Positions 25,158 to 64,000 of a DNA stretch of 64,000 nt are shown one piece after another (within the stretch, counting starts at the first letter, position 1; the number at the start of each line of letters is the position of its first letter). A program made the position numbers and the translations under genes. This stretch comes from Thuidium tamariscinum (lineage: Eukaryota > Streptophyta > Bryopsida > Hypnales > Thuidiaceae). The notes under the pieces were generated by a model that was given only the letters and a program-made list of their open reading frames with translations, was not told the origin of the DNA and did no database searches. Location of the stretch: NCBI GenBank assembly GCA_947034885.2, contig OX344755.2, forward strand, positions 25,675,052 to 25,739,051, given 5' to 3'.

Positions 25158-28100
25158 CTTTAATACAAACATCTATATCATAGGTATATACTGTATAGTC
25201 TTCTAAGCTCATGGGCTCATACTCTTGGGCTCACATAATAGCAATCCTCATATTGTTGGTTGAGAAGTTGAATGACTAAAAAAATAGGATATGCTAAAAT
25301 AATGTAGACTTTGAAATTGTTTTCTATTATAAAAATACATCTTGCATCCTTCAATTATTAGTCCCAACACTTATTGCAAATATATCAAGGTGGAGATGTT
25401 TATAAAATTTTCATGGAATTTCTACTTGAAAATAAATAATTTTTTGAGAGCTCAAAGAATTCCAACTTCTATTACATGAAACTATTAGTTCTAACTAATG
25501 AATTTTTTTTAACACTTAGAAGTATCTTACAACCCAAAAATTGCTAAAGGACTAGGATCATCCAACTCTTAGTATATTCTCGACTACTTGTTTTACAAAA
25601 TCTAAAGAAAAATTGAGGTGAATGCTTTCTGTATAGTCTTTAACTTCATGATCTTGAAATTAGTGCACAGACATTCAATATACAATCATTTCAACTTCAT
25701 ATCTTTTAGACATTGTATAGTAGTGGCATTCTTAAATTGAATCCAATTTTCAACTTTCCAATATATTTTATGTGATTAAGAAGTGAGAGTTCCATAACAC
25801 TTAGTAATGGTTGGTAGACAAATTATGTTAAAATAGATGATACAAAATTAAAGTAGACTATCAAATTTGCTTTGAATGTCTCCTACTTACATAAAATGTT
25901 TCATGATTGTAAAATAAGAAAATTTTGAGTGAATGATTTTGAATGTTTTTCATATACTTCAAACATGCATCTAGTTTATAGTTTCAAGTTTCTATTACTC
26001 CGAACTTTGAAAATCCCCCTGAAAAAATCTCAATTTCTAATATTTTTATAATATATATATTTATGGATTTCCATTCATCTATGGGGCAAAAATAACAACT
26101 AATTGTAGTGGCAAGAGTACGATGCACTCCTAGTTATATTTGGCCTTTGACTTGGTATACAATATACATCCACGGGGGGGGGGAGGAGGGTGTGGATACA
26201 AACATTTATTAGCCTTGCACTAGCAAAGCTATAAATTTTCAAATCATTGTGATTGGGGTTGGAGTGAAATGGCTCCCTTGCTCAATCATTCCAAGGGTGC
26301 AAATTAAAAAAATAAGCCTCCTATATTGTGCTTCATTAATTTACCTTCAACACCCCACCTAGTGAGTGTGGGGCTTCTAATTGCAAGTGTCAACTTAAAA
26401 GTTGCAAATATCATCATGCATGAAAAAAAAATTCACCGTTTGCCTCAGGGGCCGAGAAAGGGGGCTACTTCACCACCGGCCGGGATTGCTTGCTGTAAAC
26501 TCCTTTGCCATTTATTCTGGTAAGGAGCAGGCCCTATGCCCTTGTGAATGACTGAGTCGGCGGGGTTATGTAGCAACTGATTTGGAGTCATTTACTCATT
26601 TTGTGACTATAGCATCTCTTTAAGGAAAGCGCATTTGTGCCTTGCATGTGCACGATGTGCGACCTATGCCCTGAAATAGATTGTGCAGAAAGTCCGAATG
26701 AGGATACTTTTTGAATAATAGATGTGTGCCTTCTTCCACGAATTGACGGCTGCATTTACTAGTTCTTTTCCGATGTAGGTGGAGGAATTTTGTCTTCAAA
26801 CGAAAGACAGAAGTTGCAATTCATTGAGGTTGGCGAAATTAGAGAGTGATGACGTCGAAGGACTATGCGAAGTTTTTTTTGCGGTTGTTTTTAGGGTTTG
26901 TCTTCATGTCATTGCCTCCGGTGCTGGTTGCCTAATGAGTCCAATGAGTCTTGTAGAGAGGTGCGTCGCAAAGTAGTGAGCAGCACTGAGCATCGTGGAC
27001 CTTTGAGTAGTGTTGAATTGTAGAGTACTGCCCACACGATTGTGTTTAATTTCAATACTTTGTATAGCGAGATGAAATTGTAATCAGATATTGTTTTTTG
27101 GAGGAGTAACAATGAATAGGCTTAGAAGCGCTATGGACCTCAGTAATGAATAAGTTGTGAAGAACACACAGCTTGTTTCCAACTTATTCGCAAGTCACTT
27201 CTTTGCGAGTGGTTTTGATTTTGATGAAATTGCAATTCTGTAGCATTTGTGAAAAAATGTGTGAGTCTCAAAGCACTTCGTTGTGGTAAATTTCAAATGG
27301 TAGTTACAGTAACTCTTCGGCAAGGTACTTGGCGTGTACCTGGTGGAATGAATCGCTGTTGTCTTCAAATGTTTCTGCTTCATGGAGAATTGAATTTGGA
27401 TTAGAGCACTTTGGAGTCTTGAAGGGTAAAGAACAGGAGTAAGACACTTTGACTTTAGTTGGTTTCCAATACGTTCCTCATCTGGGCATGCGACCACCTT
27501 AAGTGAATCTTTTGCAGATGAGTGACGAAGAGTCGATTTGCTTTTGTTTTTGTTGTTATTGTAGATATCAGTGAACTTGTTTTCGTTGACATTGATAACT
27601 TTTGGTAGGGCAGACTGCCAATGTGAACCACATAGACGTCCAATTTCGATGGTATAACAAAACCATTTATTTTTGTTCATCATGTTTGATCAATTTGAAC
27701 ATGGGAATCTTTATTTGAAGGAATGCATGATAGATATGATATATTTTGTGGCTTACGTAAGTTTAGGAACACATTCGCTACGTGAATGATGAACATTGTT
27801 GTATTTAAATTATGTATAGTGCATCGGTCATTATTTCAATTAAAACTTGTGCATTCCTCATTGTTTCTCGTAAATAGGAATGGATGTCAGTGATTTAATG
27901 TTCTTCTAAGGGCGGTTAATTTTATGGTTTGATTTTTTGATTTCAATTGTAATTACATTTCTATAGCGCAGGTGCTACAAAGCAAAGGTTCTATCGATGA
28001 GAGTACTGAAGCATGTGTTTAGGATGATAGGAATTGATTCTCTTGGCTGCAGCTCAATACTTAATGACGAAGTTGAAGGAGGTAACTGATATTTTCTTAC

Positions 28101-28870
28101 AGCTTCAGTTGTATTCATTGAGTGGTTGCTCCAACAAAAATGGTCGGAGGTCTTGGTGTTTTTATCTAAAAGATTGATGGCTCTTCAAATTCTTATTGAA
28201 AATGGTTTGCAGTATTTCAAGCTTTAGACATCTTTACTTCTTTTTTTTCTGGCATGGAAGGTCAAGTGAGAACTCCACTTAATACTTCTCTCTGATGACT
28301 AGATGTTCTCATATTATTGGCCATCCATTTGGAATATGATTGGTTGGTGGCATGATAGTGATGTAGCTCATCGTTCTAATAAGACTTACACATTTCAATT
28401 AGATTTTTAGAAGTTCTTGTGTTTAGATATGTAAAGTCTCTTGTAACATGAGGTTTAGGTTGATTATTCGAGCACAACTTTAGAGCACTAGAAACCGTGA
28501 AGCTGCTGCTATTGATTTCAGTGAGAGCTCAAGTGCATGGAGCATTCGGTATTGTTTCTATCTGGCGATCTCTAGGCCCATGACTTAAATTCAATTTTGA
28601 GCACTTGGGGTTGATAGATGGCGTTTAGGGCATGCCTATCTTGTTGGCCAGTCCTTGCATTTAAGATATCCAAGCCTTCGATTTTCAGACTAGATACCTT
28701 GAAGAATTTTGTCTAAATGCAAGGTTTTTTTAATTTCCTTTATCGGACACTCAATGCCATAGTAGGAAATACCTGATGCAAAATTTGCATCAAATTTGGA
28801 ATCTAAACAAGACCTCCTCAAGTAGTGCATTGACAAAGTGCACTTCCTTAATTAGTTGTGTGCAGGAAAC
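25158..28870. other. Host DNA of the left arm, no gene recognised
   Basis: AT-rich DNA with a less AT-rich patch near 26.4-27.1 kb. The longest frame (minus strand, 27195-27683, 162 codons, lysine- and serine-rich) has no recognisable domain. Its exact copy in the other arm says nothing about selection because the whole arm is duplicated. A G10 run lies at 26174-26183. Second copy of the dispersed repeat at 26268-26415. Confidence 0.45.
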
Positions 28871-29126
28871 TATTGATATTACAAAGGTATTGTTGGATGA
28901 AAGGCTTTACTTAGATGGTAGGAAGATACAAAGACCCATGAGTGGGCTGATCTTATGCTACAAGCCTTTCCCTAGTTATCCACAAACCATGTGGGATAAC
29001 TACCTTTCATGGGCTGCCTTTGACTACGAGCAATACCCAATGGACTCTAAGACTAACCTAGTGTCTAATGCTACTCCTAGGGCTGTATGTACATGGTCTA
29101 CACTAATATGTACATGATCTTCAACA
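28871..29126 (-). repeat. LTR, subfamily A, antisense
   Basis: 256 bp; outermost copia boundary of the left arm. Its mirror is 60031-60286. Confidence 0.88.
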
Positions 29127-29619
29127 CTCCCACTTTGAGAGTGGTCAAAGGTGCAATGAATTATCATTGCAATCAAGTTTGGGTTGGTGGCTTACTAAGT
29201 ACGCCATAAAACTATCTCAACACTCTCTTGACCGCTGCCCAACACTTTGGGCCATACTTAGACATGGATTCACATACAACACTCACCGATAATGCCAAAT
29301 CAGCCCTTGTGGCTTCCATGGCATGCTTCAAAGAACTCACCACTGCCTTATAGGGCACACCTTGCATTTCAGCCCTTGCCTCCTCCAACTCGTCATCTAT
29401 GAGCTTGGGCAACTCCTCATGAGTGTTAAGTGGTGTACCTAGGGCTTTGCACTCCGTTTGCATAGCCAACTCCCACTTGCTTGCATCTTCACAACCCAAC
29501 ACTTCTCCAAGTGTGGTTGCATCTCCAAAGCAAGCTACGTTGGCTTCTTCTTCACGTTGTGGGGGAAGAATGTGATTCAACCACCAATCTCCTAGAGGCT
29601 TACGAGTCCTTGTTGGATA
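28871..29619 (-). mobile_element. Copia 3' fragment, antisense
   Basis: Minus-strand LTR-A (28871-29126), polypurine tract and the end of a pol region (a 122-codon frame, 29212-29580, with C-terminal RT-like words MSKYGPKCWAAVKRV). Broken. The left flank gaaac is host DNA; the right side ends exactly at the first base of the next LTR. Confidence 0.8.
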
Positions 29620-29875
29620 TGTTGAAGATCATGTACATATTAGTGTAGACTATGTACATTCAGCCCTAGGAGTAGGAGTAGACTCTTAGTTAGGCTTAGA
29701 GTCCCTTGGGTATTGCTTGTAGTCAAAGGCAGCCCATGGTGTTTGGTTATCCCACATGGTTTGTGGATAACTAGGGAAAGGCTTCTCCCTTATGTTCAGC
29801 CCACTCATGGGCCTTGGCATCTTCCTACCATCTAAGTAAAGCCTTTCATCCATTCATAACATTGGAATCTCAATA
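29620..29875 (+). repeat. LTR, subfamily B
   Basis: 256 bp. Joined on its left at its exact first base to inverted pol sequence, and on its right to the PBS. Confidence 0.88.
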
Positions 29876-31002
29876 GGTTATGGGCCCACGCACTTGGAGT
29901 TGCGTTTGAGGGAGGAATTCAAAGCATTTGGAGGAGATCTTGGAGCTTGGAGGAGTAATTAGCCCTTTGTCACTTTTCACCTACAAACCATATGGTGTGA
30001 GTCATTTTGCAAATATCAACAACTTTGGAGTGCATTTTAAAAAAAAAAGGAATTTCTTTTAGGAGCTATTGTTGGCTGGTTTGTGAGGTTTTGAGTCCAT
30101 TTTGGGTGAGAGTTTGCTTATGGTAGTAATAAGACCTAGTTAGGGCTGGTTGGAAGCTCCTAGTTTGAGTTTGTGCTTAGAAGTGTACATTGGGAGCCCA
30201 TTGAGGCTGATTGTGCATTTGAGTGCATTGTGGATTGTGATGGTGCCAATTGCAATCTAGTGAGAGTCCTTTGGAGGCCTTGGAAGCATATTTGAGTTGC
30301 TTGAGGAGTTTGCCATGCATAGAGGGCTGATTAGAGCCCTTGTGAGTGAGTGAGGCAATTCATGGATTTCTTGATCCTTAGAGGACTGATTTCTGCCCCT
30401 TGTGAGCCATTCAGGGCCAATTAGGGTGCTTTGGTGGATTGGTGATCCAATTAGGGCTATTGGAGGCCATTGTTGTCCTTGAGGTGCTTATTGTGAGTAG
30501 TAGCATCCATTTAGGGCTGATTGGAAGGCTTGAGCGCCTTGTTGTGTGGAGTACCCTATTTGTGAGAAGCATTGTGAGATTGCTTGCTGAATTGAAGGAG
30601 CACTAGCCCATGACATTCATGTGGTGAATTTGAGCTTGATTAGGGTCTGATTTGGTGTGGAGTAGAGGTGAGGCACTTGTGTGGAGTGTTTAGGTCGTTT
30701 CCTTGGATTGGGAGGAGCTTGGAAGGTCCTTGGAAGGGCTGATTGTTGCCATTTCAGCCCAATTGGCTTCCAAGTGAGTGTTTGGAGGCTGAATTTAGTT
30801 GGAGACACTTGGGGTGCTGCCAACAAGTGGGACGTGCTTCACCATGGCATCAAGTGGAGGAGAGGGCGTGCGCATCATTGACAAGTTCAATGGGGAGAAC
30901 TTTGGCATGTGGAAGTTCAAGATGGAGATGATTCTTGCGGAGAAGGACTTGTGGGATGTGGTGGATGGGAGTGAGGAGCCTCCAAGTGAGGATGCTGATC
31001 CA
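29620..31002 (+). mobile_element. Copia 5' fragment (LTR-B, leader, gag start)
   Basis: LTR-B 29620-29875, PBS, leader and the start of gag (ATG at 30844, MASSGGEGVRIIDKFNGENF). Very close to the 5' part of element II. It stops exactly where the next LTR begins. Broken. Confidence 0.85.
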
Positions 31003-31716
31003 TGTTGAAGATCATGTACATATTAGTGTAGATCATGTACATACAACCCTAGGAGTAGCATTAGACACTAGGTTAGTCTTAGAGTCCATTGGGTATTGCT
31101 TGTTGAAGATCATGTACATATTAGTGTAGACCATGTACATACAGCCCTAGGAGTAGCATTAGACACTAGGTTAGTCTTAGAGTCCATTGGGTATTGCTCG
31201 TAGTCAAAGGCAGCCCATGAAAGGTAGTTATCCCACATGGTTTGTGGATAACTAGGGAAAGGCTTCTAGTATAAGATCAGCCCACTCATGGGTCTTTGGA
31301 TCTTCCTACCATCTAAGTAAAGCCTTTCATCCATTCATACCTTTGTTTCTTCAAAAGGTTATGGGCCCACGCACTTGGAGTTGCGCTTGAGGGTGAAATT
31401 CAAATCATTTGGAAGAGATCTTGGAGCTTGGAGGAGCAATCAGCCTTTTGTGTCTTTTCACCTACAAACCATATGGTGTGAGTATTCTTTGGAAAAACAC
31501 ATTTTGAGTGCATTTTTTTTTTAAAAAGGGAAGAGGAAAGTTTTGTTGCTTTCTCATTGGCTGGTTTGTGAGGTTTTGAGTACATTTTGGTGGAGAGGTT
31601 GCTTATGGTAGTAATCAGACCTAGTTAGGGCTGGTTGCATGCTCCTAGTTTGAGTTTGCTTTTAGAAGTGTGCATTGAGAGCCATTTGAGGCTGAATTGT
31701 GCACTTGGGTGCATTG
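31003..31716 (+). mobile_element. Copia LTR head, full LTR-A and partial leader
   Basis: A 98-bp LTR head (31003-31100) is followed by a complete LTR-A (31101-31356), PBS (31357-31370) and part of a leader, ending at the next LTR. Broken. Confidence 0.8.
31101..31356 (+). repeat. LTR, subfamily A
   Basis: 256 bp, ending in a variant TTCAAAA before the PBS. Preceded by a 98-bp partial head of the same LTR. Confidence 0.8.
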
Positions 31717-31972
31717 TGTTGAAGATCATGTACATATTAGTGTAGACCATGTACATGCAGCCCTAGGAGTAGCATTAGACACTAGGATAGTGTTAGAGTC
31801 CATTGGGTATTGCTCGTAGTCAAAGGCAGCCCATGAAAGGTAGTTATCCCACATGGTTTGTGGATAACTAGGGAAAGGCTTCTAGTATAAGATCAGCCCA
31901 CTCATGGGTCTTTGGATCTTCCTACCATCTAAGTAAAGCCTTTCATCCATTCATACCTTTGTTTTCTCAATA
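31717..31972 (+). repeat. LTR, subfamily A
   Basis: 256 bp, ending TTTTCTCAATA, followed by the PBS. Its left neighbour is leader sequence cut at gggtgcattg. Confidence 0.85.
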
Positions 31973-32326
31973 GGTTATGGGCCCACGCACTTGGAGTTGC
32001 GCTTGAGGGTGAAATTCAAATCATTTGGAGGAGATCTTGGAGCTTGGAGGAGCAATCAGCCTTTTGTGTCTTTTCAACTACAAACCATATGGTGTGAGTA
32101 TTCTTTGGAAAAACACACTTTGAGTGCATTTTTTTTAAAAAAGGAAGAAGAAAGTTTTGTTGCTTTCTCATTGGCTGGTTTGTGAGGTTTTGAGTACATT
32201 TTGGAGGAGAGGTTGCTTATGGTAGTAATCAAACCTAGTTAGGGCTGGTTGCATGCTCCTAGTTTGAGTTTGCTTTTAGAAGTGTGCATTGAGAGCCATT
32301 TGAGGCTGAATTGTGCACTTGGGTGC

Positions 32327-33092
32327 ATTGATGAGTGAGATTGTGCCAATTGCACTTTAGTGAGAGTGCTTTGAGGCTGATTGTGCACTTGGGTGCATTG
32401 TTGAGTGAGATTGTGCCAATTGCACTAGAGTGAGAGTGCTTTGAGGCTGATTGTGCACTTGGGTGCATTGTTGAGAGTGATTGTGAGCCTTGGAAGCATG
32501 TTTGGGATGCTTGGGGCGATTGCCATCCATTGAGGGCTGATTAGTGCCCTTATGAGTGAGTGAGGCGAATTTGTGGACTTGGTGAACTTAAGAGGGCTGA
32601 TTAGTGCCCTTGTGAGTGAGTGAGGCTAATAGGAGGATTTTGTGAACCTTAGAGGGCTGATTTGTGCCCCTGTGTGTGAGAGGCGAATTAGTGGATTTTG
32701 TGAACCTTCGAGGGCTGATTTGTGCCTTTGTGTGTGAGAGAGGTGAATTAGTGGATTTTGTGAACCCAAGAGGGCTGATTTGTGCCCTTGTGTGTGAGAG
32801 AGGCGAACTAGTGGATTTTGCAAATCGAAGAGGGCTGAATAGTGCCCTTGTGAGTGAGTGAGGCGAATTAGTGGATTTTTGTGAACCCTTGAGGGCTGAT
32901 TTGAGCCCTTGTGTGTGAGTGAGGTGAATTAGTGGAATTTGTGAACCCTAGAGGGCTGATTTGTGCCCTTGTGTGTGAGAGAGGCGAATTAGTGGATTTT
33001 GCAAATCCTAGAGGGCTGATTTGAGCCCTTTTGTGTGAGAGAGGTGAATTAGTGGGTTTTGTGAACCCAAGAGGGCTGAATTGTGCCCTTGT
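32327..33092 (+). repeat. Leader tandem arrays (70-bp and 60-bp units)
   Basis: About two 70-bp units (32327-32487) are followed by about nine 60-bp units (about 32537-33092). Each 60-bp unit carries GGGCTGATT, and the period keeps frames open on both strands. Mirror about 56065-56830. Confidence 0.8.
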
Positions 33093-35342
33093 GAGCCTTG
33101 TGGAGCCATTGAGAGCAAAGTAGGATTCTTTGGTGGCTTGGTGATCCAACTAGGGTTATTGGAGACCATTGTCTGGAGTACCCTCTTTGTGAGGAGGGCT
33201 TGCTGAATTGAAGTAGCACTAGCTCATGACATCCATGTGTTGGACTTGAGTTTGATTAGGGTCTGAATTGGTGTTGAGAGGAGGTGATGCACATGTGAGG
33301 AGTGTTTGGCCGTCCTTAGTGTTCAAAGGATCTTTGGAGTTCCTTGTGAGGGCTGATTGGTGTCATTTCAGCCCTATTGGTTGCCAAGGGAATGTTTGGT
33401 CGTTCTTGGAGCTTAGAGGATCTTGGGAGGTCCTTGTGAGGGCTGAATTGTTCCATTTCAGCGCCATTGGCTGCCAATGGAGTGTTTGGAGGCTGAATTG
33501 AGTTTTTCAACTCTTGGAGACACATTGGGTGCTGCCAACAAGTGGGAGGTGCTTCACCATGGCATCAAGTGGAGGAGAAGGCGTGCGCATCATTGACAAG
33601 TATGATGAGGAGAATGAGTCCCAAGGGGAGGGATCAGCCCTTGTCTCAAGACATGGGAGAGGAGGCAACACCAAGGCATTCAAGGAGACAAGGACGTGCT
33701 TCAAGTGTGGCAAACCAGGCCACATTGCTAGGGATTGCAAGGGCAGCCAAGCCAAAGACAAGCAAAGTGCACACCAAGCCTCCAAAGAGGAGGAGGAGGA
33801 GATCGCCTTTGCCACCCATGGGGGAGGGGAGAAGGCCAACATGTTCACTTGGATTGTGGACTCGGGGGCCACCCAACATATGACCAGCCATCGGGATGCC
33901 TTCCACACCTATCAGCCCATTTCGGGGAAGAAGATTTATTTGGGAGACAATGGCATGGTGGAGGCCCTTGGCAAGGGGGAGATCCTTGTGGAGGTGCAAG
34001 TGAAGGGGCTGACTAAGAGGATCCAGATCCAAGAGGCCCTCCATGTACCCAAGTTGCATGCCAACTTGCTTTCGGTGAGTCGATTGTCTTTGGGAGGTTT
34101 GAAGGTTCATTTCAACAAGGTGGGGTGTGTTGTGAGGGCACCCAGTGGAGTTTTGATAGCATCAGCCCCTCGTGAGGGCCACTTGTACCCACTCCACTTC
34201 ACCAAGGTGAATGGTACTTCCTTCGCTTGTGTTGCCCAAGGATCAGCCCAAGGATCAGCTCATGGAGACCTTGTGGAGCTTTGGCATAGGAGGCTTGGGC
34301 ACTTGAATGTGAAGAGCATGAGGAGTCTCCAACACATTGTGAAGGGGCTGAACCTCTCTTCTTGCAAGCATGATTGGAGTTCTAGGGTGTGCAAGGGGTG
34401 CATTGAGGGCAAGCAAGCAAGGCAGCCCTTCCCCAAGGATGGGGCAACCCGAGCCACCAAGCCATTGGAGCTTGTGCATTCAGATGTGTGTGGGCCGATG
34501 AAGACCACAACCATAGGAGGAGCAAGGTATTTTGTGACCTTCATTGATGATTTCTCTCGCAAGGTGTGGGTGTATATGCTGAAGTGCAAGAGTGAGGTGT
34601 TTGGGCGTTTTGAGACTTGGAAGGCCCTTGTGGAGGCCCAATCTGATTGCAAGGTGAAGGTGCTGCGGTCGGATAATGGAGGGGAGTATGTGTCCAAGGC
34701 CTTTGAGGAGTACTTGAAGGCCCATGGCATTGAGCACCACACATCAGCACCTTACACTCCTCAACAAAACGGCGTAGCGGAGCGTGCCAATCGGACCATT
34801 GTGGAGATGGCAAGGTCTATGATTCATGGGCAAGGGCTGAAGTATGAGCTTTGGGGGGAGGCGGTGTCTACAGCGGTTTATACAAGGAACCGGTGCCCCA
34901 CCCAAGCCTTGACAAGCATGACACCCCAAGAAGCATGACACCCCAAGAAGCTTGGAGTGGAATTAGGCCTCATGTGTCTCACATGCGGATTTTTGGGTGC
35001 ATGGCCTATGCATTGGTCCCAAGTGCCAAGAGGACCAAGTTGGATGCCAAGGGCATGAAGTGCCTTTTCCTTGGTTATTGTGAGGGAACCAAGGCTTATA
35101 GGCTGATGTGTATGGAGAGCAATAAAATCATCAAGAGTAGAGATGTGACCTTCTTGGAGGATGGAGGTGCTGATCCCAAGCTCTTGGAGATGAGCCCAAG
35201 TGGGAGAAATGGAGGACCAGCCCATGTGGTGGGCACAACTCCAAGAGTGCACATGGAAGATGATGGAGATGAAGATGAAGAAGATGAAGAGTGGGTGGAG
35301 CCCAAGAAGAAGGTGGCCACACCCCAAGGGAAGAGGCCATCA

Positions 35343-35598
35343 TGTTGAAGATCATGTACATATTAGTGTAGACCATGTACATACAGCCCTAGGAGTAGCA
35401 TTAGACACTAGGTTAGTCTTAGAGTCCATTGGGTATTGCTCGTAGTCAAAGGCAGCCCATGAAAGGTAGTTATCCCACATGGTTTGTGGATAACTAGGGA
35501 AAGGCTTTTAGCATAAGATCAGGCCACTCATGGGTCTTTGTATCTTTCTACCATCTAAGTGAAGCCTTTCATCCATGAATACCTTTGTAATCTCAATA
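35343..35598 (+). repeat. LTR, subfamily A
   Basis: 256 bp between pol-side sequence (left) and PBS (right). Confidence 0.85.
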
Positions 35599-35791
35599 GG
35601 TTATGGGCCCACACACTTGGAGTTGCGCTTGAGGGTGAAATTCAAATCATTTGGAGGAGATCTTGGAGCTTGGAAGAGCAATCAGCCTTTTGTGACTTTT
35701 CACCTACAAACCATATGGTGTGAGTATATTTTTCGAAAAACAAACTTTGAGTGCATTTTTTAGAAAAGGAAGAGGAAAGTTTTGTTGCTTT
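35343..35791 (+). mobile_element. Copia LTR-A plus leader start
   Basis: LTR-A 35343-35598 followed by PBS and about 190 bp of leader, cut by an antisense LTR at 35792. Being followed by a PBS, this LTR acts as a left LTR even though it also closes the preceding unit, as in tandem elements sharing an LTR. Confidence 0.8.
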
Positions 35792-36047
35792 TATTGAGAT
35801 TACAAAGGTATTGATGGATGAAAGGCTTTACTTAGATGGTAGGAAGATACAAAGACCCATGAGTGGGCTGATCTTATGCTACAAGCCTTTCCCTAGTTAT
35901 CCACAAACCATGTGGGATAACTACCTTTCATGGGCTGCCTTTGACTACGAGCAATACCCAATGGACTCTAAGACTAACCTAGTGTCTAATGCTACACCTA
36001 GGGCTGTTTGTACATGGTCTACACTAATATGTACATGATCTTCAACA
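35792..36047 (-). repeat. LTR, subfamily A, antisense
   Basis: 256 bp. Its 3' end (TATTGA side) abuts sense leader; its 5' end abuts the polypurine tract of the antisense unit. Confidence 0.87.
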
Positions 36048-49227: not shown

Positions 49228-50156
49228 TTGGCAGCACCCAATGTGTCTCCAAGAGTTCACAAACTCAATTCAGCCTCCAAACACTCCCTTGGCAACCAAT
49301 GGGACTGAAAGGGCACAATTCAGCCCTCACAAGGACCTCCCAAGATCCTCCAAGCTCCAAAAACGACCAAACATTCCCTTGGCAGCCAATAGGGTTAAAA
49401 TGGCACCAATCCGCCCTCACAAGGACCCCCAAAGATCCTTTTGAACACCAAGGACGGCCAAACACTCCTCACATGTGCATCACCTCCTCTCAACCCCAAT
49501 TCAGACCCTAATCAAGCTCAAGTCCAACACATGGACGTCATTAGCTAGTGCTACTTCAATTCAGCAAGCCCTCCTCACAAAGAGGGTACTCCACACTCCA
49601 AGGAGCTCTAGGCTTCCAATAAGCCCTAGATGGAAGCTCCTACTCACAATCAGCACGTCAAGGGCAACAATGGTCTCCAACAACCCTAGTTGGATCACCA
49701 AGCCACCAAAGAATCCTACTTTGCTCTCAATGGCTCCACAAGGCTCACAAGGGCACAATTCAGCCCTCTTGGGTTTACAAAACCCACTAATTCACCTCTC
49801 TCACACACAAGGGCACAAATCAGCCCTCTAAAGTTCACAAAATCCTCCAATTAGCCTCACTCACTCAAAAGGGCACTAATCAGCCCTCTTAAGTTCACCA
49901 AGTCCACAAATTCGCCTCACTCACTCATAAGGGCACTAATCAGCCCTCAATGGATGGCAATCGCCCCAAGCATCCCAAACATGCTTCCAAGGCTCACAAT
50001 CACTCTCAACAATGCACCCAAGTGCACAATCAGCCTCAAAGCACTCTCACTCTAGTGCAATTGGCACAATCTCACTTAACAATGCACCCAAGTGCACAAT
50101 CAGCCTCAAAGCACTCTCACTCTAGTGCAATTGGCACAATCTCACTCAATAATGCA
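49228..50156 (-). mobile_element. Copia leader fragment, antisense, two 70-bp units
   Basis: Mirror of 39001-39999 but 70 bp shorter: two 70-bp units instead of three (about 50010-50156). Confidence 0.75.
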
Positions 50157-53100: not shown

Positions 53101-53365
53101 AAGTGGGAGTGTTGAAGATCATGTACATATTAGTGTAGACCATGTACAAACAGCCCTAGGTGTAGCATTAGACACTAGGTTAGTCTTAGAGTCCATTGGG
53201 TATTGCTCGTAGTCAAAGGCAGCCCATGAAAGGTAGTTATCCCACATGGTTTGTGGATAACTAGGGAAAGGCTTGTAGCATAAGATCAGCCCACTCATGG
53301 GTCTTTGTATCTTCCTACCATCTAAGTAAAGCCTTTCATCCATCAATACCTTTGTAATCTCAATA
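50157..53365 (+). mobile_element. Shortened copia element, 759-codon frame
   Basis: Mirror of 35792-39000: leader, open frame 50745-53024 with zinc knuckle, protease and integrase, polypurine tract and LTR-A 53110-53365. The translated residues are identical to the left copy. Broken and non-autonomous. Confidence 0.85.
53110..53365 (+). repeat. LTR, subfamily A
   Basis: Mirror of 35792-36047; 256 bp, preceded by aaagtgggag. Confidence 0.87.
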
Positions 53366-53814
53366 AAAGCAACAAAACTTTCCTCTTCCTTTTCTAAAAA
53401 ATGCACTCAAAGTTTGTTTTTCGAAAAATATACTCACACCATATGGTTTGTAGGTGAAAAGTCACAAAAGGCTGATTGCTCTTCCAAGCTCCAAGATCTC
53501 CTCCAAATGATTTGAATTTCACCCTCAAGCGCAACTCCAAGTGTGTGGGCCCATAACCTATTGAGATTACAAAGGTATTCATGGATGAAAGGCTTCACTT
53601 AGATGGTAGAAAGATACAAAGACCCATGAGTGGCCTGATCTTATGCTAAAAGCCTTTCCCTAGTTATCCACAAACCATGTGGGATAACTACCTTTCATGG
53701 GCTGCCTTTGACTACGAGCAATACCCAATGGACTCTAAGACTAACCTAGTGTCTAATGCTACTCCTAGGGCTGTATGTACATGGTCTACACTAATATGTA
53801 CATGATCTTCAACA
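53366..53814 (-). mobile_element. Copia LTR-A plus leader start, antisense
   Basis: Mirror of 35343-35791; LTR-A at 53559-53814. Confidence 0.8.
53559..53814 (-). repeat. LTR, subfamily A, antisense
   Basis: Mirror of 35343-35598; 256 bp. Confidence 0.85.
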
Positions 53815-56800
53815 TGATGGCCTCTTCCCTTGGGGTGTGGCCACCTTCTTCTTGGGCTCCACCCACTCTTCATCTTCTTCATCTTCATCTCCATCATCTT
53901 CCATGTGCACTCTTGGAGTTGTGCCCACCACATGGGCTGGTCCTCCATTTCTCCCACTTGGGCTCATCTCCAAGAGCTTGGGATCAGCACCTCCATCCTC
54001 CAAGAAGGTCACATCTCTACTCTTGATGATTTTATTGCTCTCCATACACATCAGCCTATAAGCCTTGGTTCCCTCACAATAACCAAGGAAAAGGCACTTC
54101 ATGCCCTTGGCATCCAACTTGGTCCTCTTGGCACTTGGGACCAATGCATAGGCCATGCACCCAAAAATCCGCATGTGAGACACATGAGGCCTAATTCCAC
54201 TCCAAGCTTCTTGGGGTGTCATGCTTCTTGGGGTGTCATGCTTGTCAAGGCTTGGGTGGGGCACCGGTTCCTTGTATAAACCGCTGTAGACACCGCCTCC
54301 CCCCAAAGCTCATACTTCAGCCCTTGCCCATGAATCATAGACCTTGCCATCTCCACAATGGTCCGATTCGCACGCTCCGCTACGCCGTTTTGTTGAGGAG
54401 TGTAAGGTGCTGATGTGTGGTGCTCAATGCCATGGGCCTTCAAGTACTCCTCAAAGGCCTTGGACACATACTCCCCTCCATTATCCGACCGCAGCACCTT
54501 CACCTTGCAATCAGATTGGGCCTCCACAAGGGCCTTCCAAGTCTCAAAACGCCCAAACACCTCACTCTTGCACTTCAGCATATACACCCACACCTTGCGA
54601 GAGAAATCATCAATGAAGGTCACAAAATACCTTGCTCCTCCTATGGTTGTGGTCTTCATCGGCCCACACACATCTGAATGCACAAGCTCCAATGGCTTGG
54701 TGGCTCGGGTTGCCCCATCCTTGGGGAAGGGCTGCCTTGCTTGCTTGCCCTCAATGCACCCCTTGCACACCCTAGAACTCCAATCATGCTTGCAAGAAGA
54801 GAGGTTCAGCCCCTTCACAATGTGTTGGAGACTCCTCATGCTCTTCACATTCAAGTGCCCAAGCCTCCTATGCCAAAGCTCCACAAGGTCTCCATGAGCT
54901 GATCCTTGGGCTGATCCTTGGGCAACACAAGCGAAGGAAGTACCATTCACCTTGGTGAAGTGGAGTGGGTACAAGTGGCCCTCACGAGGGGCTGATGCTA
55001 TCAAAACTCCACTGGGTGCCCTCACAACACACCCCACCTTGTTGAAATGAACCTTCAAACCTCCCAAAGACAATCGACTCACCGAAAGCAAGTTGGCATG
55101 CAACTTGGGTACATGGAGGGCCTCTTGGATCTGGATCCTCTTAGTCAGCCCCTTCACTTGCACCTCCACAAGGATCTCCCCCTTGCCAAGGGCCTCCACC
55201 ATGCCATTGTCTCCCAAATAAATCTTCTTCCCCGAAATGGGCTGATAGGTGTGGAAGGCATCCCGATGGCTGGTCATATGTTGGGTGGCCCCCGAGTCCA
55301 CAATCCAAGTGAACATGTTGGCCTTCTCCCCTCCCCCATGGGTGGCAAAGGCGATCTCCTCCTCCTCCTCTTTGGAGGCTTGGTGTGCACTTTGCTTGTC
55401 TTTGGCTTGGCTGCCCTTGCAATCCCTAGCAATGTGGCCTGGTTTGCCACACTTGAAGCACGTCCTTGTCTCCTTGAATGCCTTGGTGTTGCCTCCTCTC
55501 CCATGTCTTGAGACAAGGGCTGATCCCTCCCCTTGGGACTCATTCTCCTCATCATACTTGTCAATGATGCGCACGCCTTCTCCTCCACTTGATGCCATGG
55601 TGAAGCACCTCCCACTTGTTGGCAGCACCCAATGTGTCTCCAAGAGTTGAAAAACTCAATTCAGCCTCCAAACACTCCATTGGCAGCCAATGGCGCTGAA
55701 ATGGAACAATTCAGCCCTCACAAGGACCTCCCAAGATCCTCTAAGCTCCAAGAACGACCAAACATTCCCTTGGCAACCAATAGGGCTGAAATGACACCAA
55801 TCAGCCCTCACAAGGAACTCCAAAGATCCTTTGAACACTAAGGACGGCCAAACACTCCTCACATGTGCATCACCTCCTCTCAACACCAATTCAGACCCTA
55901 ATCAAACTCAAGTCCAACACATGGATGTCATGAGCTAGTGCTACTTCAATTCAGCAAGCCCTCCTCACAAAGAGGGTACTCCAGACAATGGTCTCCAATA
56001 ACCCTAGTTGGATCACCAAGCCACCAAAGAATCCTACTTTGCTCTCAATGGCTCCACAAGGCTCACAAGGGCACAATTCAGCCCTCTTGGGTTCACAAAA
56101 CCCACTAATTCACCTCTCTCACACAAAAGGGCTCAAATCAGCCCTCTAGGATTTGCAAAATCCACTAATTCGCCTCTCTCACACACAAGGGCACAAATCA
56201 GCCCTCTAGGGTTCACAAATTCCACTAATTCACCTCACTCACACACAAGGGCTCAAATCAGCCCTCAAGGGTTCACAAAAATCCACTAATTCGCCTCACT
56301 CACTCACAAGGGCACTATTCAGCCCTCTTCGATTTGCAAAATCCACTAGTTCGCCTCTCTCACACACAAGGGCACAAATCAGCCCTCTTGGGTTCACAAA
56401 ATCCACTAATTCACCTCTCTCACACACAAAGGCACAAATCAGCCCTCGAAGGTTCACAAAATCCACTAATTCGCCTCTCACACACAGGGGCACAAATCAG
56501 CCCTCTAAGGTTCACAAAATCCTCCTATTAGCCTCACTCACTCACAAGGGCACTAATCAGCCCTCTTAAGTTCACCAAGTCCACAAATTCGCCTCACTCA
56601 CTCATAAGGGCACTAATCAGCCCTCAATGGATGGCAATCGCCCCAAGCATCCCAAACATGCTTCCAAGGCTCACAATCACTCTCAACAATGCACCCAAGT
56701 GCACAATCAGCCTCAAAGCACTCTCACTCTAGTGCAATTGGCACAATCTCACTCAACAATGCACCCAAGTGCACAATCAGCCTCAAAGCACTCTCACTAA

Positions 56801-57440
56801 AGTGCAATTGGCACAATCTCACTCATCAATGCACCCAAGTGCACAATTCAGCCTCAAATGGCTCTCAATGCACACTTCTAAAAGCAAACTCAAACTAGGA
56901 GCATGCAACCAGCCCTAACTAGGTCTGATTACTACCATAAGCAACCTCTCCTCCAAAATGTACTCAAAACCTCACAAACCAGCCAATGAGAAAGCAACAA
57001 AACTTTCTTCTTCCTTTTTTAAAAAAAATGCACTCAAAGTGTGTTTTTCCAAAGAATACTCACACCATATGGTTTGTAGTTGAAAAGACACAAAAGGCTG
57101 ATTGCTCCTCCAAGCTCCAAGATCTCCTCCAAATGATTTGAATTTCACCCTCAAGCGCAACTCCAAGTGCGTGGGCCCATAACCTATTGAGAAAACAAAG
57201 GTATGAATGGATGAAAGGCTTTACTTAGATGGTAGGAAGATCCAAAGACCCATGAGTGGGCTGATCTTATACTAGAAGCCTTTCCCTAGTTATCCACAAA
57301 CCATGTGGGATAACTACCTTTCATGGGCTGCCTTTGACTACGAGCAATACCCAATGGACTCTAACACTATCCTAGTGTCTAATGCTACTCCTAGGGCTGC
57401 ATGTACATGGTCTACACTAATATGTACATGATCTTCAACA
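53815..57440 (-). mobile_element. Shortened copia element, antisense
   Basis: Mirror of 31717-35342: LTR-A 57185-57440, leader arrays about 56065-56830, shortened gag, protease and integrase (frame 55643-54219). At least one substitution separates the arms here (seen in the antisense reading near 54362/34795). Broken. Confidence 0.82.
57185..57440 (-). repeat. LTR, subfamily A, antisense
   Basis: Mirror of 31717-31972; 256 bp. Confidence 0.85.
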
Positions 57441-58154
57441 CAATGCACCCAAGTGCACAATTCAGCCTCAAATGGCTCTCAATGCACACTTCTAAAAGCA
57501 AACTCAAACTAGGAGCATGCAACCAGCCCTAACTAGGTCTGATTACTACCATAAGCAACCTCTCCACCAAAATGTACTCAAAACCTCACAAACCAGCCAA
57601 TGAGAAAGCAACAAAACTTTCCTCTTCCCTTTTTAAAAAAAAAATGCACTCAAAATGTGTTTTTCCAAAGAATACTCACACCATATGGTTTGTAGGTGAA
57701 AAGACACAAAAGGCTGATTGCTCCTCCAAGCTCCAAGATCTCCTCCAAATGATTTGAATTTCACCCTCAAGCGCAACTCCAAGTGCGTGGGCCCATAACC
57801 TTTTGAAGAAACAAAGGTATGAATGGATGAAAGGCTTTACTTAGATGGTAGGAAGATCCAAAGACCCATGAGTGGGCTGATCTTATACTAGAAGCCTTTC
57901 CCTAGTTATCCACAAACCATGTGGGATAACTACCTTTCATGGGCTGCCTTTGACTACGAGCAATACCCAATGGACTCTAAGACTAACCTAGTGTCTAATG
58001 CTACTCCTAGGGCTGTATGTACATGGTCTACACTAATATGTACATGATCTTCAACAAGCAATACCCAATGGACTCTAAGACTAACCTAGTGTCTAATGCT
58101 ACTCCTAGGGTTGTATGTACATGATCTACACTAATATGTACATGATCTTCAACA
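57441..58154 (-). mobile_element. Copia LTR head, LTR-A and partial leader, antisense
   Basis: Mirror of 31003-31716: LTR-A 57801-58056 and the 98-bp LTR head 58057-58154. One substitution in the leader piece relative to the left arm. Confidence 0.8.
57801..58056 (-). repeat. LTR, subfamily A, antisense
   Basis: Mirror of 31101-31356; 256 bp. Confidence 0.8.
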
Positions 58155-59537
58155 TGGATCAGCATCCTCACTTGGAGGCTCCTCACTCCCATCCACCACA
58201 TCCCACAAGTCCTTCTCCGCAAGAATCATCTCCATCTTGAACTTCCACATGCCAAAGTTCTCCCCATTGAACTTGTCAATGATGCGCACGCCCTCTCCTC
58301 CACTTGATGCCATGGTGAAGCACGTCCCACTTGTTGGCAGCACCCCAAGTGTCTCCAACTAAATTCAGCCTCCAAACACTCACTTGGAAGCCAATTGGGC
58401 TGAAATGGCAACAATCAGCCCTTCCAAGGACCTTCCAAGCTCCTCCCAATCCAAGGAAACGACCTAAACACTCCACACAAGTGCCTCACCTCTACTCCAC
58501 ACCAAATCAGACCCTAATCAAGCTCAAATTCACCACATGAATGTCATGGGCTAGTGCTCCTTCAATTCAGCAAGCAATCTCACAATGCTTCTCACAAATA
58601 GGGTACTCCACACAACAAGGCGCTCAAGCCTTCCAATCAGCCCTAAATGGATGCTACTACTCACAATAAGCACCTCAAGGACAACAATGGCCTCCAATAG
58701 CCCTAATTGGATCACCAATCCACCAAAGCACCCTAATTGGCCCTGAATGGCTCACAAGGGGCAGAAATCAGTCCTCTAAGGATCAAGAAATCCATGAATT
58801 GCCTCACTCACTCACAAGGGCTCTAATCAGCCCTCTATGCATGGCAAACTCCTCAAGCAACTCAAATATGCTTCCAAGGCCTCCAAAGGACTCTCACTAG
58901 ATTGCAATTGGCACCATCACAATCCACAATGCACTCAAATGCACAATCAGCCTCAATGGGCTCCCAATGTACACTTCTAAGCACAAACTCAAACTAGGAG
59001 CTTCCAACCAGCCCTAACTAGGTCTTATTACTACCATAAGCAAACTCTCACCCAAAATGGACTCAAAACCTCACAAACCAGCCAACAATAGCTCCTAAAA
59101 GAAATTCCTTTTTTTTTTAAAATGCACTCCAAAGTTGTTGATATTTGCAAAATGACTCACACCATATGGTTTGTAGGTGAAAAGTGACAAAGGGCTGATT
59201 ACTCCTCCAAGCTCCAAGATCTCCTCCAAATGCTTTGAATTCCTCCCTCAAACGCAACTCCAAGTGCGTGGGCCCATAACCTATTGAGATTCCAATGTTA
59301 TGAATGGATGAAAGGCTTTACTTAGATGGTAGGAAGATGCCAAGGCCCATGAGTGGGCTGAACATAAGGGAGAAGCCTTTCCCTAGTTATCCACAAACCA
59401 TGTGGGATAACCAAACACCATGGGCTGCCTTTGACTACAAGCAATACCCAAGGGACTCTAAGCCTAACTAAGAGTCTACTCCTACTCCTAGGGCTGAATG
59501 TACATAGTCTACACTAATATGTACATGATCTTCAACA
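58155..59537 (-). mobile_element. Copia 5' fragment, antisense (LTR-B, leader, gag start)
   Basis: Mirror of 29620-31002; LTR-B at 59282-59537. Confidence 0.85.
59282..59537 (-). repeat. LTR, subfamily B, antisense
   Basis: Mirror of 29620-29875; 256 bp. Confidence 0.87.
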
Positions 59538-60286
59538 TATCCAACAAGGACTCGTAAGCCTCTAGGAGATTGGTGGTTGAATCACATTCTTCCCCCACAA
59601 CGTGAAGAAGAAGCCAACGTAGCTTGCTTTGGAGATGCAACCACACTTGGAGAAGTGTTGGGTTGTGAAGATGCAAGCAAGTGGGAGTTGGCTATGCAAA
59701 CGGAGTGCAAAGCCCTAGGTACACCACTTAACACTCATGAGGAGTTGCCCAAGCTCATAGATGACGAGTTGGAGGAGGCAAGGGCTGAAATGCAAGGTGT
59801 GCCCTATAAGGCAGTGGTGAGTTCTTTGAAGCATGCCATGGAAGCCACAAGGGCTGATTTGGCATTATCGGTGAGTGTTGTATGTGAATCCATGTCTAAG
59901 TATGGCCCAAAGTGTTGGGCAGCGGTCAAGAGAGTGTTGAGATAGTTTTATGGCGTACTTAGTAAGCCACCAACCCAAACTTGATTGCAATGATAATTCA
60001 TTGCACCTTTGACCACTCTCAAAGTGGGAGTGTTGAAGATCATGTACATATTAGTGTAGACCATGTACATACAGCCCTAGGAGTAGCATTAGACACTAGG
60101 TTAGTCTTAGAGTCCATTGGGTATTGCTCGTAGTCAAAGGCAGCCCATGAAAGGTAGTTATCCCACATGGTTTGTGGATAACTAGGGAAAGGCTTGTAGC
60201 ATAAGATCAGCCCACTCATGGGTCTTTGTATCTTCCTACCATCTAAGTAAAGCCTTTCATCCAACAATACCTTTGTAATATCAATA
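59538..60286 (+). mobile_element. Copia 3' fragment (pol end, LTR-A)
   Basis: Mirror of 28871-29619: pol-end frame 59577-59945, polypurine tract, LTR-A 60031-60286. Host DNA follows (gtttc), the reverse complement of the left-arm flank. Confidence 0.8.
60031..60286 (+). repeat. LTR, subfamily A
   Basis: Mirror of 28871-29126; 256 bp. Outermost copia boundary of the right arm. Confidence 0.88.
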
Positions 60287-63200
60287 GTTTCCTGCACACA
60301 ACTAATTAAGGAAGTGCACTTTGTCAATGCACTACTTGAGGAGGTCTTGTTTAGATTCCAAATTTGATGCAAATTTTGCATCAGGTATTTCCTACTATGG
60401 CATTGAGTGTCCGATAAAGGAAATTAAAAAAACCTTGCATTTGGACAAAATTCTTCAAGGTATCTAGTCTGAAAATCGAAGGCTTGGATATCTTAAATGC
60501 AAGGACTGGCCAACAAGATAGGCATGCCCTAAACGCCATCTATCAACCCCAAGTGCTCAAAATTGAATTTAAGTCATGGGCCTAGAGATCGCCAGATAGA
60601 AACAATACCGAATGCTCCATGCACTTGAGCTCTCACTGAAATCAATAGCAGCAGCTTCACGGTTTCTAGTGCTCTAAAGTTGTGCTCGAATAATCAACCT
60701 AAACCTCATGTTACAAGAGACTTTACATATCTAAACACAAGAACTTCTAAAAATCTAATTGAAATGTGTAAGTCTTATTAGAACGATGAGCTACATCACT
60801 ATCATGCCACCAACCAATCATATTCCAAATGGATGGCCAATAATATGAGAACATCTAGTCATCAGAGAGAAGTATTAAGTGGAGTTCTCACTTGACCTTC
60901 CATGCCAGAAAAAAAAGAAGTAAAGATGTCTAAAGCTTGAAATACTGCAAACCATTTTCAATAAGAATTTGAAGAGCCATCAATCTTTTAGATAAAAACA
61001 CCAAGACCTCCGACCATTTTTGTTGGAGCAACCACTCAATGAATACAACTGAAGCTGTAAGAAAATATCAGTTACCTCCTTCAACTTCGTCATTAAGTAT
61101 TGAGCTGCAGCCAAGAGAATCAATTCCTATCATCCTAAACACATGCTTCAGTACTCTCATCGATAGAACCTTTGCTTTGTAGCACCTGCGCTATAGAAAT
61201 GTAATTACAATTGAAATCAAAAAATCAAACCATAAAATTAACCGCCCTTAGAAGAACATTAAATCACTGACATCCATTCCTATTTACGAGAAACAATGAG
61301 GAATGCACAAGTTTTAATTGAAATAATGACCGATGCACTATACATAATTTAAATACAACAATGTTCATCATTCACGTAGCGAATGTGTTCCTAAACTTAC
61401 GTAAGCCACAAAATATATCATATCTATCATGCATTCCTTCAAATAAAGATTCCCATGTTCAAATTGATCAAACATGATGAACAAAAATAAATGGTTTTGT
61501 TATACCATCGAAATTGGACGTCTATGTGGTTCACATTGGCAGTCTGCCCTACCAAAAGTTATCAATGTCAACGAAAACAAGTTCACTGATATCTACAATA
61601 ACAACAAAAACAAAAGCAAATCGACTCTTCGTCACTCATCTGCAAAAGATTCACTTAAGGTGGTCGCATGCCCAGATGAGGAACGTATTGGAAACCAACT
61701 AAAGTCAAAGTGTCTTACTCCTGTTCTTTACCCTTCAAGACTCCAAAGTGCTCTAATCCAAATTCAATTCTCCATGAAGCAGAAACATTTGAAGACAACA
61801 GCGATTCATTCCACCAGGTACACGCCAAGTACCTTGCCGAAGAGTTACTGTAACTACCATTTGAAATTTACCACAACGAAGTGCTTTGAGACTCACACAT
61901 TTTTTCACAAATGCTACAGAATTGCAATTTCATCAAAATCAAAACCACTCGCAAAGAAGTGACTTGCGAATAAGTTGGAAACAAGCTGTGTGTTCTTCAC
62001 AACTTATTCATTACTGAGGTCCATAGCGCTTCTAAGCCTATTCATTGTTACTCCTCCAAAAAACAATATCTGATTACAATTTCATCTCGCTATACAAAGT
62101 ATTGAAATTAAACACAATCGTGTGGGCAGTACTCTACAATTCAACACTACTCAAAGGTCCACGATGCTCAGTGCTGCTCACTACTTTGCGACGCACCTCT
62201 CTACAAGACTCATTGGACTCATTAGGCAACCAGCACCGGAGGCAATGACATGAAGACAAACCCTAAAAACAACCGCAAAAAAAACTTCACATAGTCCTTC
62301 GACGTCATCACTCTCTAATTTCGCCAACCTCAATGAATTGCAACTTCTGTCTTTCATTTGAAGACAAAATTCCTCCACCTACATCGGAAAAGAACTAGTA
62401 AATGCAGCCGTCAATTCGTGGAAGAAGGCACACATCTATTATTCAAAAAGTATCCTCATTCGGACTTTCTGCACAATCTATTTCAGGGCATAGGTCGCAC
62501 ATCGTGCACATGCAAGGCACAAATGCGCTTTCCTTAAAGAGATGCTATAGTCACAAAATGAGTAAATGACTCCAAATCAGTTGCTACATAACCCCGCCGA
62601 CTCAGTCATTCACAAGGGCATAGGGCCTGCTCCTTACCAGAATAAATGGCAAAGGAGTTTACAGCAAGCAATCCCGGCCGGTGGTGAAGTAGCCCCCTTT
62701 CTCGGCCCCTGAGGCAAACGGTGAATTTTTTTTTCATGCATGATGATATTTGCAACTTTTAAGTTGACACTTGCAATTAGAAGCCCCACACTCACTAGGT
62801 GGGGTGTTGAAGGTAAATTAATGAAGCACAATATAGGAGGCTTATTTTTTTAATTTGCACCCTTGGAATGATTGAGCAAGGGAGCCATTTCACTCCAACC
62901 CCAATCACAATGATTTGAAAATTTATAGCTTTGCTAGTGCAAGGCTAATAAATGTTTGTATCCACACCCTCCTCCCCCCCCCCCGTGGATGTATATTGTA
63001 TACCAAGTCAAAGGCCAAATATAACTAGGAGTGCATCGTACTCTTGCCACTACAATTAGTTGTTATTTTTGCCCCATAGATGAATGGAAATCCATAAATA
63101 TATATATTATAAAAATATTAGAAATTGAGATTTTTTCAGGGGGATTTTCAAAGTTCGGAGTAATAGAAACTTGAAACTATAAACTAGATGCATGTTTGAA

Positions 63201-64000
63201 GTATATGAAAAACATTCAAAATCATTCACTCAAAATTTTCTTATTTTACAATCATGAAACATTTTATGTAAGTAGGAGACATTCAAAGCAAATTTGATAG
63301 TCTACTTTAATTTTGTATCATCTATTTTAACATAATTTGTCTACCAACCATTACTAAGTGTTATGGAACTCTCACTTCTTAATCACATAAAATATATTGG
63401 AAAGTTGAAAATTGGATTCAATTTAAGAATGCCACTACTATACAATGTCTAAAAGATATGAAGTTGAAATGATTGTATATTGAATGTCTGTGCACTAATT
63501 TCAAGATCATGAAGTTAAAGACTATACAGAAAGCATTCACCTCAATTTTTCTTTAGATTTTGTAAAACAAGTAGTCGAGAATATACTAAGAGTTGGATGA
63601 TCCTAGTCCTTTAGCAATTTTTGGGTTGTAAGATACTTCTAAGTGTTAAAAAAAATTCATTAGTTAGAACTAATAGTTTCATGTAATAGAAGTTGGAATT
63701 CTTTGAGCTCTCAAAAAATTATTTATTTTCAAGTAGAAATTCCATGAAAATTTTATAAACATCTCCACCTTGATATATTTGCAATAAGTGTTGGGACTAA
63801 TAATTGAAGGATGCAAGATGTATTTTTATAATAGAAAACAATTTCAAAGTCTACATTATTTTAGCATATCCTATTTTTTTAGTCATTCAACTTCTCAACC
63901 AATAATATGAGGATTGCTATTATGTGAGCCCAAGAGTATGAGCCCATGAGCTTAGAAGACTATACAGTATATACCTATGATATAGATGTTTGTATTAAAG
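60287..64000. other. Host DNA of the right arm, no gene recognised
   Basis: Inverted copy of 25158-28870 with the C11 run at 62974-62984. A substitution is visible near 60440 (gcatttggac here, against gcatttagac in the reverse complement of the left arm). The arm continues past the window. Confidence 0.5.

What the first reader, a model, noticed from the sequence alone, without database searches (positions are those of the whole stretch)
25158..64000. A palindrome with about 17.2-kb arms and a 4.4-kb spacer
Reading 64000 backward reproduces 25158 forward. Paired features keep a constant coordinate sum (89157) across at least 12 kb, and translated frames up to 759 residues are identical between arms. 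About 3.7 kb of ordinary host DNA is included, so this is not just TE similarity. Near-identity means a very recent inverted duplication, conversion-maintained arms (as in sex-chromosome palindromes), or an assembly foldback.
Basis: seen in the sequence. Interest (0 to 1): 0.85.

Follow-up and report, generated by a model that had tools for sequence, protein, structure and literature searches.

The report
Retrotransposon-seeded palindrome in a moss-like chromosome
A long stretch of plant (probably moss) DNA is present twice, head to head, as an almost exact mirror image; its boundaries lie in copies of one jumping gene, which suggests that a broken end folded back on an inverted copy and copied its surroundings: a known kind of accident, unusually well recorded here.

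Summary
The palindrome is in the assembly and is larger than reported. The continuous arms are window 12406-42521 and 46707-76753 (about 30 kb; spacer 4.2 kb). Mirrored DNA resumes past a retrotransposon-filled gap at 4349-5455/84539-85645, so the duplicated unit spans about 38 kb. Arms differ at 12 substitutions in 29.8 kb (0.04%). The arm stretches searched are found at full length only twice in the genome. The 264 kb held contain no N.

The boundaries are not random: five of six segment boundaries lie, on at least one side, at a terminus, in an LTR or in the leader array of one Ty1/copia family. At the inner end two different copia copies meet in inverted orientation; they differ by 6 substitutions and two indels over 342 bp, and arm-level identity begins inside their tandem array. 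Best reading: a break next to one copia folded back on the inverted copy, copied about 30-38 kb outward, and was rejoined through copia DNA. Fold-back at inverted repeats is known from yeast.

Alternatives kept: an older duplication homogenised by gene conversion (differences pile up at three of six boundaries), and assembly error (no reads available). 'Sex-chromosome-like' is not shown. Ordinary in kind, unusually legible.

The parts
4349..5455 (+). outer mirrored segment ('outer1'): 1,049 bp of DNA found only twice in the genome plus 58 bp of an LTR tail; partner 85645-84539 in inverted orientation
   Evidence: 99.64% over 1,107 bp; two places in the whole genome, both candidates of the first look scored; 4 differences, all in 5248-5405; LTR tail 58/58 identical
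5456..12405 (.). copia block filling the left arm where the right side has 76754-84538: a + strand element with both LTRs (5456-11018) followed by a 5' fragment of a - strand element (12405-11019); no matching target-site duplications (aaatt, cttga, gcggg)
   Evidence: LTR map; LTR pair 5456/10763 98.0%; ORF 7269-10832 with Pfam RVT_2, rve and zf-CCHC
12406..42521 (+). left arm of the palindrome
   Evidence: pairs with 76753-46707; 12 substitutions in 12406-42179
12406..28870 (.). arm portion outside the copia nest; no gene recognised: none of the 10 open stretches of 75 aa or more reaches a Pfam cut-off
   Evidence: 16000-22000 at full length at two places in the genome
28871..41178 (.). copia nest inside the left arm: several 5'-intact, 3'-truncated + strand copies (LTR starts 29620, 31003, 31717, 35343, 40000) and - strand pieces with 3' LTRs at 28871 and 35792
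41179..42521 (+). inner end of left arm: 5' LTR (41179-41434) and leader with a 60-bp tandem array (41744-42304); 42180-42521 is the diverged zone where two different copia copies meet
42522..46706 (+). spacer: coding part (ORF 42816-46466, 1216 aa) and 3' LTR (46397-46652) of a + strand copia, followed by most of a 55-bp LTR tail (46653-46707; its last base is counted with the right arm)
46707..64000 (-). right arm as far as the window goes; it continues to 76753, then flank 76754-84538, then outer1 84539-85645

Best explanation
A chromosomal inverted duplication seeded by inverted copies of one Ty1/copia family. Inferred order: (1) a + strand copia (coding part 42816-46466, 3' LTR to 46652) came to lie beside a - strand copia (5' LTR at 48048, leader reaching 46708), leaving their leaders as inverted repeats about 4.2-4.6 kb apart. 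(2) A break on the left exposed the + strand leader; it annealed to or invaded the inverted leader array. (3) Synthesis copied the right side outward for about 30 kb, giving the left arm. (4) The end was rejoined to the left chromosome through copia DNA: a block of copia with intact LTR termini and no target-site duplications (5456-12405), then the outer1 copy, which ends in a 58-bp LTR tail that on the left is the end of a full LTR. Shown: the anatomy, identities and copy numbers. Inferred: direction (right arm is the template), order of steps, and whether the copia block was captured as cDNA during the event or came with a later deletion.
For: Arms: 12 substitutions in 29,774 bp, 11 of them transitions, spread evenly (KS p=0.68). 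Inner zone 42180-42521: 6 substitutions plus 72-bp and 9-bp indels; 6 of 18 arm differences in 342 of 30,116 bp, p=4e-8. The right-hand zone is 99.05% identical to another copia copy (33034-33244) and shares its 72-bp deletion, while the left-hand zone best matches 38932-38388 (97.1%): so two different copies. The tandem arrays differ by one unit (61 bp extra on the right). The right inner junction lies exactly at an LTR 3' terminus (46707), as in an ordinary insertion into the - strand copy. The two LTRs around the spacer coding part, 41179 and 46397, are only 85.5% identical, against 98.8% for the TSD-bearing control 107865-112075. Outer1 occurs twice in the genome. In yeast with long single-stranded DNA (a cdc13 mutant), inverted repeats kilobases apart and imperfect fold back into inverted dimers; 12 sequenced clones from 1.5-kb-spaced repeats had inverted duplications of about 24 kb (8) or 100 kb (4), the latter with breakpoints near a Ty1 or a tRNA gene (PMC10164571; abstract and passages seen).
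Against: The 85.5% LTR mismatch could predate the duplication: the nest is full of truncated copies, and the 3' LTR 46397 is 98.0% like the 5' LTR at 40000 in the same arm. The - strand 5' LTR at 83988 and the - strand 3' LTR at 28871 share a 5-bp flank (gtttc), which would suit another ancestral order; about 0.14 such matches are expected by chance (my own estimate, about 144 pairs/1024). Outer1 and the D pair carry difference clusters near LTR edges (4 of 4 in the last 208 bp; 13 of 15 in the last 752 bp) that a single clean copying event does not predict without junction-associated mutation. The D pair (-27278..-21878 / 92387..97787) is in direct, not inverted, orientation. 76754-78189 has no other copy beyond a 65-bp stretch at 77-79% and 85646-92386 no other full-length copy, so the left arm lacks them. 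The yeast parallel comes from a mutant and gives terminal, not internal, products.
Confidence: 0.55

Rival explanations
1. An older, larger duplication (true age given by the 1.7-1.9% differences at the edges) whose interior has been homogenised by arm-to-arm gene conversion, as in sex-chromosome palindromes.
For: Edge densities are alike at three boundaries: inner 6 in 342 bp (1.8%), outer1 4 in 208 bp (1.9%), D 13 in 752 bp (1.7%), against about 0.04% inside (one search counted only 5 for the inner edge). Overall, arm and outer pieces differ in divergence (12/29,774 against 19/6,450, Fisher p=9e-8).
Against: Three other boundaries show no cluster: 0 of 12 arm substitutions in 12406-18230 (p=0.07), 0 differences in 4407-5247, 1 within 1.5 kb of -27278. 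The interior baseline is the same (0.040% and 0.043%) in 30-kb inverted arms and in a 5.4-kb direct pair 120 kb apart, which conversion would hardly equalise, though the second value rests on 2 differences. The inner cluster is explained by two different copia copies.
Confidence: 0.22
2. Assembly artefact: a foldback join, or two haplotypes joined head to head.
For: No reads could be examined; near-identical inverted copia leaders are a place where a graph could be joined wrongly. A related moss genome note reports manual correction of 118 missing joins or mis-joins and contigs of a second haplotype, although from a haploid gametophyte (PMC11992514, abstract in listing and passages seen).
Against: No N in 264 kb. 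Arms are 30 kb. Flank DNA (76754-78189; 85646-92386) has no full-length second copy in the assembly (only the best 40 candidates are scored in such searches). Pairing resumes after a 7-8-kb heterology, and a further pair is in direct orientation. The two arm differences that a C2 paralogue can polarise are derived one in each arm.
Confidence: 0.15
3. Left arm is the original and the right arm the copy, inserted beside the spacer copia.
For: The left LTR at 4151-4406 is complete while the right one is truncated at position 199; the shared gtttc flanks of 83988(-) and 28871(-).
Against: It makes 46707/46708 a new junction that falls by coincidence exactly on an LTR terminus, and does not explain why the right inner zone carries another copy's 72-bp deletion.
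Confidence: 0.08

Closest known systems
Inverted-repeat fold-back inverted duplications in yeast (Alu-IR in long ssDNA, PMC10164571)
   Same: A pair of imperfect inverted repeats with a spacer of kilobases at the centre; duplicated arms of tens of kb; breakpoints near a Ty1 in part of the clones.
   Different: There the products are terminal, with deletion and translocation after dicentric breakage, in a cdc13 mutant; here the palindrome is internal and both flanks continue. No experiment here.
Capture of retrotransposon cDNA at double-strand breaks by end joining (yeast Ty1; PMC10802722, passages seen)
   Same: Copia pieces with intact LTR termini and no target-site duplication at the junctions of the 5456-12405 block.
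   Different: Capture is inferred from anatomy only; a nested or deleted ordinary insertion is possible.
Conversion-maintained sex-chromosome palindromes (primate Y; recalled)
   Same: Long inverted arms with over 99.9% identity and a short spacer.
   Different: No gene recognised in the arms; no evidence that the chromosome is a sex chromosome; conversion not demonstrated.

Membership tests
Segmental inverted duplication (palindrome) | two long arms, reverse complements at over 99% | tested here: met
Segmental inverted duplication (palindrome) | arm DNA not merely a repeat family (two copies genome-wide) | tested here: met
   window 16000-22000 at full length at two places only; arm stretch 71703-74000 likewise; outer1 exactly two. 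Searches scored the best 40 candidates and also list many shorter matches of dispersed repeats. Only these stretches were searched, not the whole arm.
Segmental inverted duplication (palindrome) | physical continuity in reads | not testable with these tools
   no reads held
Inverted-repeat fold-back duplication | inverted repeats at the centre whose own divergence exceeds that of the copied arms | tested here: met
   6 substitutions and 2 indels in 342 bp against 12 substitutions in 29.8 kb
Inverted-repeat fold-back duplication | ancestral locus without the duplication | not testable with these tools
   no related genomes offered for this window (output)
Gene-conversion-maintained palindrome | arms more alike within a species than to their orthologues | not testable with these tools
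   one genome only
Gene-conversion-maintained palindrome | divergence rising towards heterology boundaries | tested here: inconclusive
   clusters at 3 of 6 boundaries
Ty1/copia retrotransposon (the boundary element) | 256-bp LTRs TG..TA, PBS, PPT, and pol with integrase before reverse transcriptase | tested here: met
   LTRs and motifs (PBS and PPT named by position, not matched to a tRNA); rve at 309-410 before RVT_2 at 701-944 in the 1216-aa frame

The most novel reading that the evidence does not exclude
A frozen record of one multi-step repair: fold-back at inverted retrotransposon leaders, about 30 kb of synthesis, a skip, capture of retrotransposon cDNA, resolution in an LTR, and clusters of 1.7-1.9% differences beside three of the joins while the copied interiors show a uniform 0.04%. 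If so, break-associated mutagenesis beside such joins can be read from a plant germline. The rival bold reading is active arm-to-arm conversion of a palindrome on an ordinary chromosome of a haploid-dominant plant.
Probability: 0.25. Interest if true: 0.6.

Novelty: new member of a known kind. Interest (0 to 1): 0.4.

Why it matters
Large palindromes are usually discussed for animal sex chromosomes and cancer (recalled). Here the start, the path and a probable end of an inverted duplication can be read in a plant genome, with the responsible repeats named. If real, it shows how a retrotransposon nest turns into a palindrome of 64 kb (81 kb with the outer segments) and gives a testable pair of predictions (single recent event versus ongoing conversion). 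It also warns that such loci need read-level checks in moss assemblies.

Tried and rejected
Vertebrate-type telomere (TTAGGG repeats): 2 hits against 4 for the reversed control, rejected; TTTAGGG x4 gave 1165+1117 hits against 0. No tRNA and no Rfam family at gathering score in the window. Literature: (listings and starts of abstracts; passages only of PMC11992514, PMC11503002, PMC10164571, PMC10802722); none of these listings shows a moss palindrome of this kind; two searches returned 0 papers. Species: not identified; 11 chromosomes with three large ones fit Hypnales mosses such as Straminergon (table passage, PMC11992514); Climacium also has 11 with three large ones, but with one of 4.7 Mb (PMC11503002); C19 carries rbcL.

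Slips: one search was meant for the right flank but, by a coordinate error, queried 71703-74000 inside the arm; the flank was then searched. One search tested 5 of 17 differences in the inner zone; the listing has 6 of 18, recomputed. Rows dropped before the substitution counts: 1-bp indels and the tandem-unit length differences (70 and 61 bp), and the 72- and 9-bp indels of the inner zone.

Full report
What was given. The window is C7:25675052-25739051 of a 363-Mb assembly with 11 chromosome-size contigs (54.2, 47.9, 47.4, 32.5, 30.6, 29.1, 28.8, 25.7, 24.9, 24.3, 17.5 Mb) and 8 small ones. Telomere repeats are of plant type; light-harvesting genes are present, many as single open frames; C19 carries rbcL. 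Eleven chromosomes with three large ones fit pleurocarpous mosses; Straminergon stramineum has 47.5, 46.5, 45.4, then 27.6-17.5 Mb (PMC11992514, passages seen). I treat it as probably a moss; the species was not identified and no gene was compared with a moss gene.

The observation. Self-alignment confirms the palindrome. With 60 kb more on the left and 140 kb on the right the pairing runs from 12406/76753 to 42521/46707. From 12406 to 42179 there are 12 substitutions (11 transitions), two 1-bp indels, one 70-bp tandem-unit difference and, near the inner end, a 61-bp array difference and a 1-bp gap. Megablast counts 16 mismatches up to 39162; 5 of them lie in the 70-bp unit. The 264 kb contain no N.

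Copy number. Within the arm, 16000-22000 occurs at full length at two places, both here; 71703-74000 likewise. Other matches in these stretches are shorter dispersed repeats or an 87-91% paralogue on C2. These searches score only the best 40 candidates, so they show that no other near-identical full-length copy ranked there. For outer1 the first look gave 2 candidates in all.

The boundary element. One Ty1/copia family dominates: 256-bp LTR TGTTGA..TCAATA, 5' LTRs followed by ggttatgggccca, 3' LTRs preceded by ctctcaaagtgggag, and gag-pol frames with zf-CCHC, gag-pre-integrase, rve, SH3 and RVT_2 domains. The arm contains a nest of 5'-intact, 3'-truncated copies. In my hand comparison of the flanks listed, only one element with matching flanking duplications was clear (107865-112075, tcact; its LTRs are 98.8% alike).

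Inner end. The spacer is the leader end, coding part and 3' LTR of a + strand copy, plus a 55-bp LTR tail; the right arm begins at the LTR terminus, inside the leader of a - strand copy. Between 42180 and 42521 the two sides differ by 6 substitutions and 72-bp and 9-bp indels; the right side shares the 72-bp deletion with 33034-33244, the left side does not. So two distinct copia copies face each other, and arm-level identity starts in the tandem array they share. The density contrast is strong (p=4e-8).

Outer end. At 12405/12406 the left side turns into an LTR terminus, while the right side continues into DNA without another copy up to 78189, apart from about 65 bp at 77-79%. But mirrored DNA resumes: 4349-5455 pairs with 85645-84539, and 4407-5455 has exactly two places in the genome. 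Between them the left has copia pieces 5456-12405 and the right has 76754-84538, itself with a copia at 79625-83988. The outer1 segment ends in 58 bp of LTR, identical on both sides (58/58, against 51-54 for 16 other LTRs aligned there; one more, 83988, scored 11 by ungapped end comparison and is not comparable); on the left it is the end of a full LTR, on the right a truncated one.

A further pair. -27278..-21878 and 92387..97787 (5.4 kb, 'D') are 99.72% alike in direct orientation, with two full-length places in the genome. On the right it ends at an LTR terminus; its other end has no LTR. 85646-92386 between outer1 and this segment has no other full-length copy; parts of it are dispersed repeats.

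Differences. Interiors agree: 12/29,774 in the arm, 2/4,649 in D, 0/841 in outer1; the last two are small samples. Clusters sit at three of six boundaries: inner (6 in 342 bp), outer1 beside 5456 (4 in 208 bp), D beside 97788 (13 in 752 bp). Three boundaries lack them. The cluster regions were chosen after seeing the data, so the p-values are indicative. Two readings fit: one recent event (0.04%) with diverged or mutated joins, or an older duplication (1.7-1.9%) converted inside. I prefer the first because the baseline is equal in inverted and direct pairs and because the inner cluster is explained by two copia copies; I hold the second at about one in five.

Mechanism. Fold-back of a broken end on an inverted repeat followed by copying is established in yeast, also for repeats kilobases apart and imperfect when they lie in long single-stranded DNA (PMC10164571, abstract and passages). 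Capture of retrotransposon cDNA at breaks by end joining is also described there (PMC10802722, a preprint, passages). The anatomy here matches both, but order and direction are inferred. Age: 0.04% means about 2e-4 substitutions per site on each arm; I give no years because no rate was tested.

Reality of the assembly. No reads were available. Resumed pairing, TE-filled heterology, flanks without a second copy and absence of gaps argue against a foldback or haplotype join; two polarisable differences fall one on each arm. This does not replace read mapping.

Verdict. Observation right and understated; interpretation 'recent inverted duplication' favoured; conversion and artefact open. A new member of a known kind.

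Noticed in passing
G000 C1, C6, C9, C10: Six neighbouring light-harvesting gene pairs have equal or almost equal profile scores and opposite orientation (for example C6:563839(-)/633145(+), C9:17062358(-)/17064868(+)), against three direct groups (C4 6.92 Mb, C7 1.08 Mb, C4 11.9 Mb); inverted near-identical pairs may be common in this genome. Not a systematic count; sequences were not compared.
   Followed up: no
G000:C4:10979834-10983813 (L045, L046): A second, small near-perfect palindrome: inverted match of 3,057 aligned bases at 99.3% between two overlapping loci, built from a dispersed repeat also present in the arm.
   Followed up: partly
L008:4190-5604 (window coordinates 78190-79604): A repeat in the right flank has 6 of its first 8 non-self matches on the smallest chromosome C11 (best 40 candidates scored), hinting that C11 has a distinct repeat content, perhaps a sex chromosome.
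   Followed up: no
window 29620-41179: The copia nest is a series of 5'-intact, 3'-truncated copies joined head to tail without the matching 3' halves, as if only the left half of a nest had been kept.
   Followed up: partly
L005:6000-10000 (window -14000 to -10000): A young, high-copy repeat (dozens of copies at 94-99%); in three copies checked, 256 bases stand between the two matched halves (query 1990/1993) that this copy lacks.
   Followed up: no
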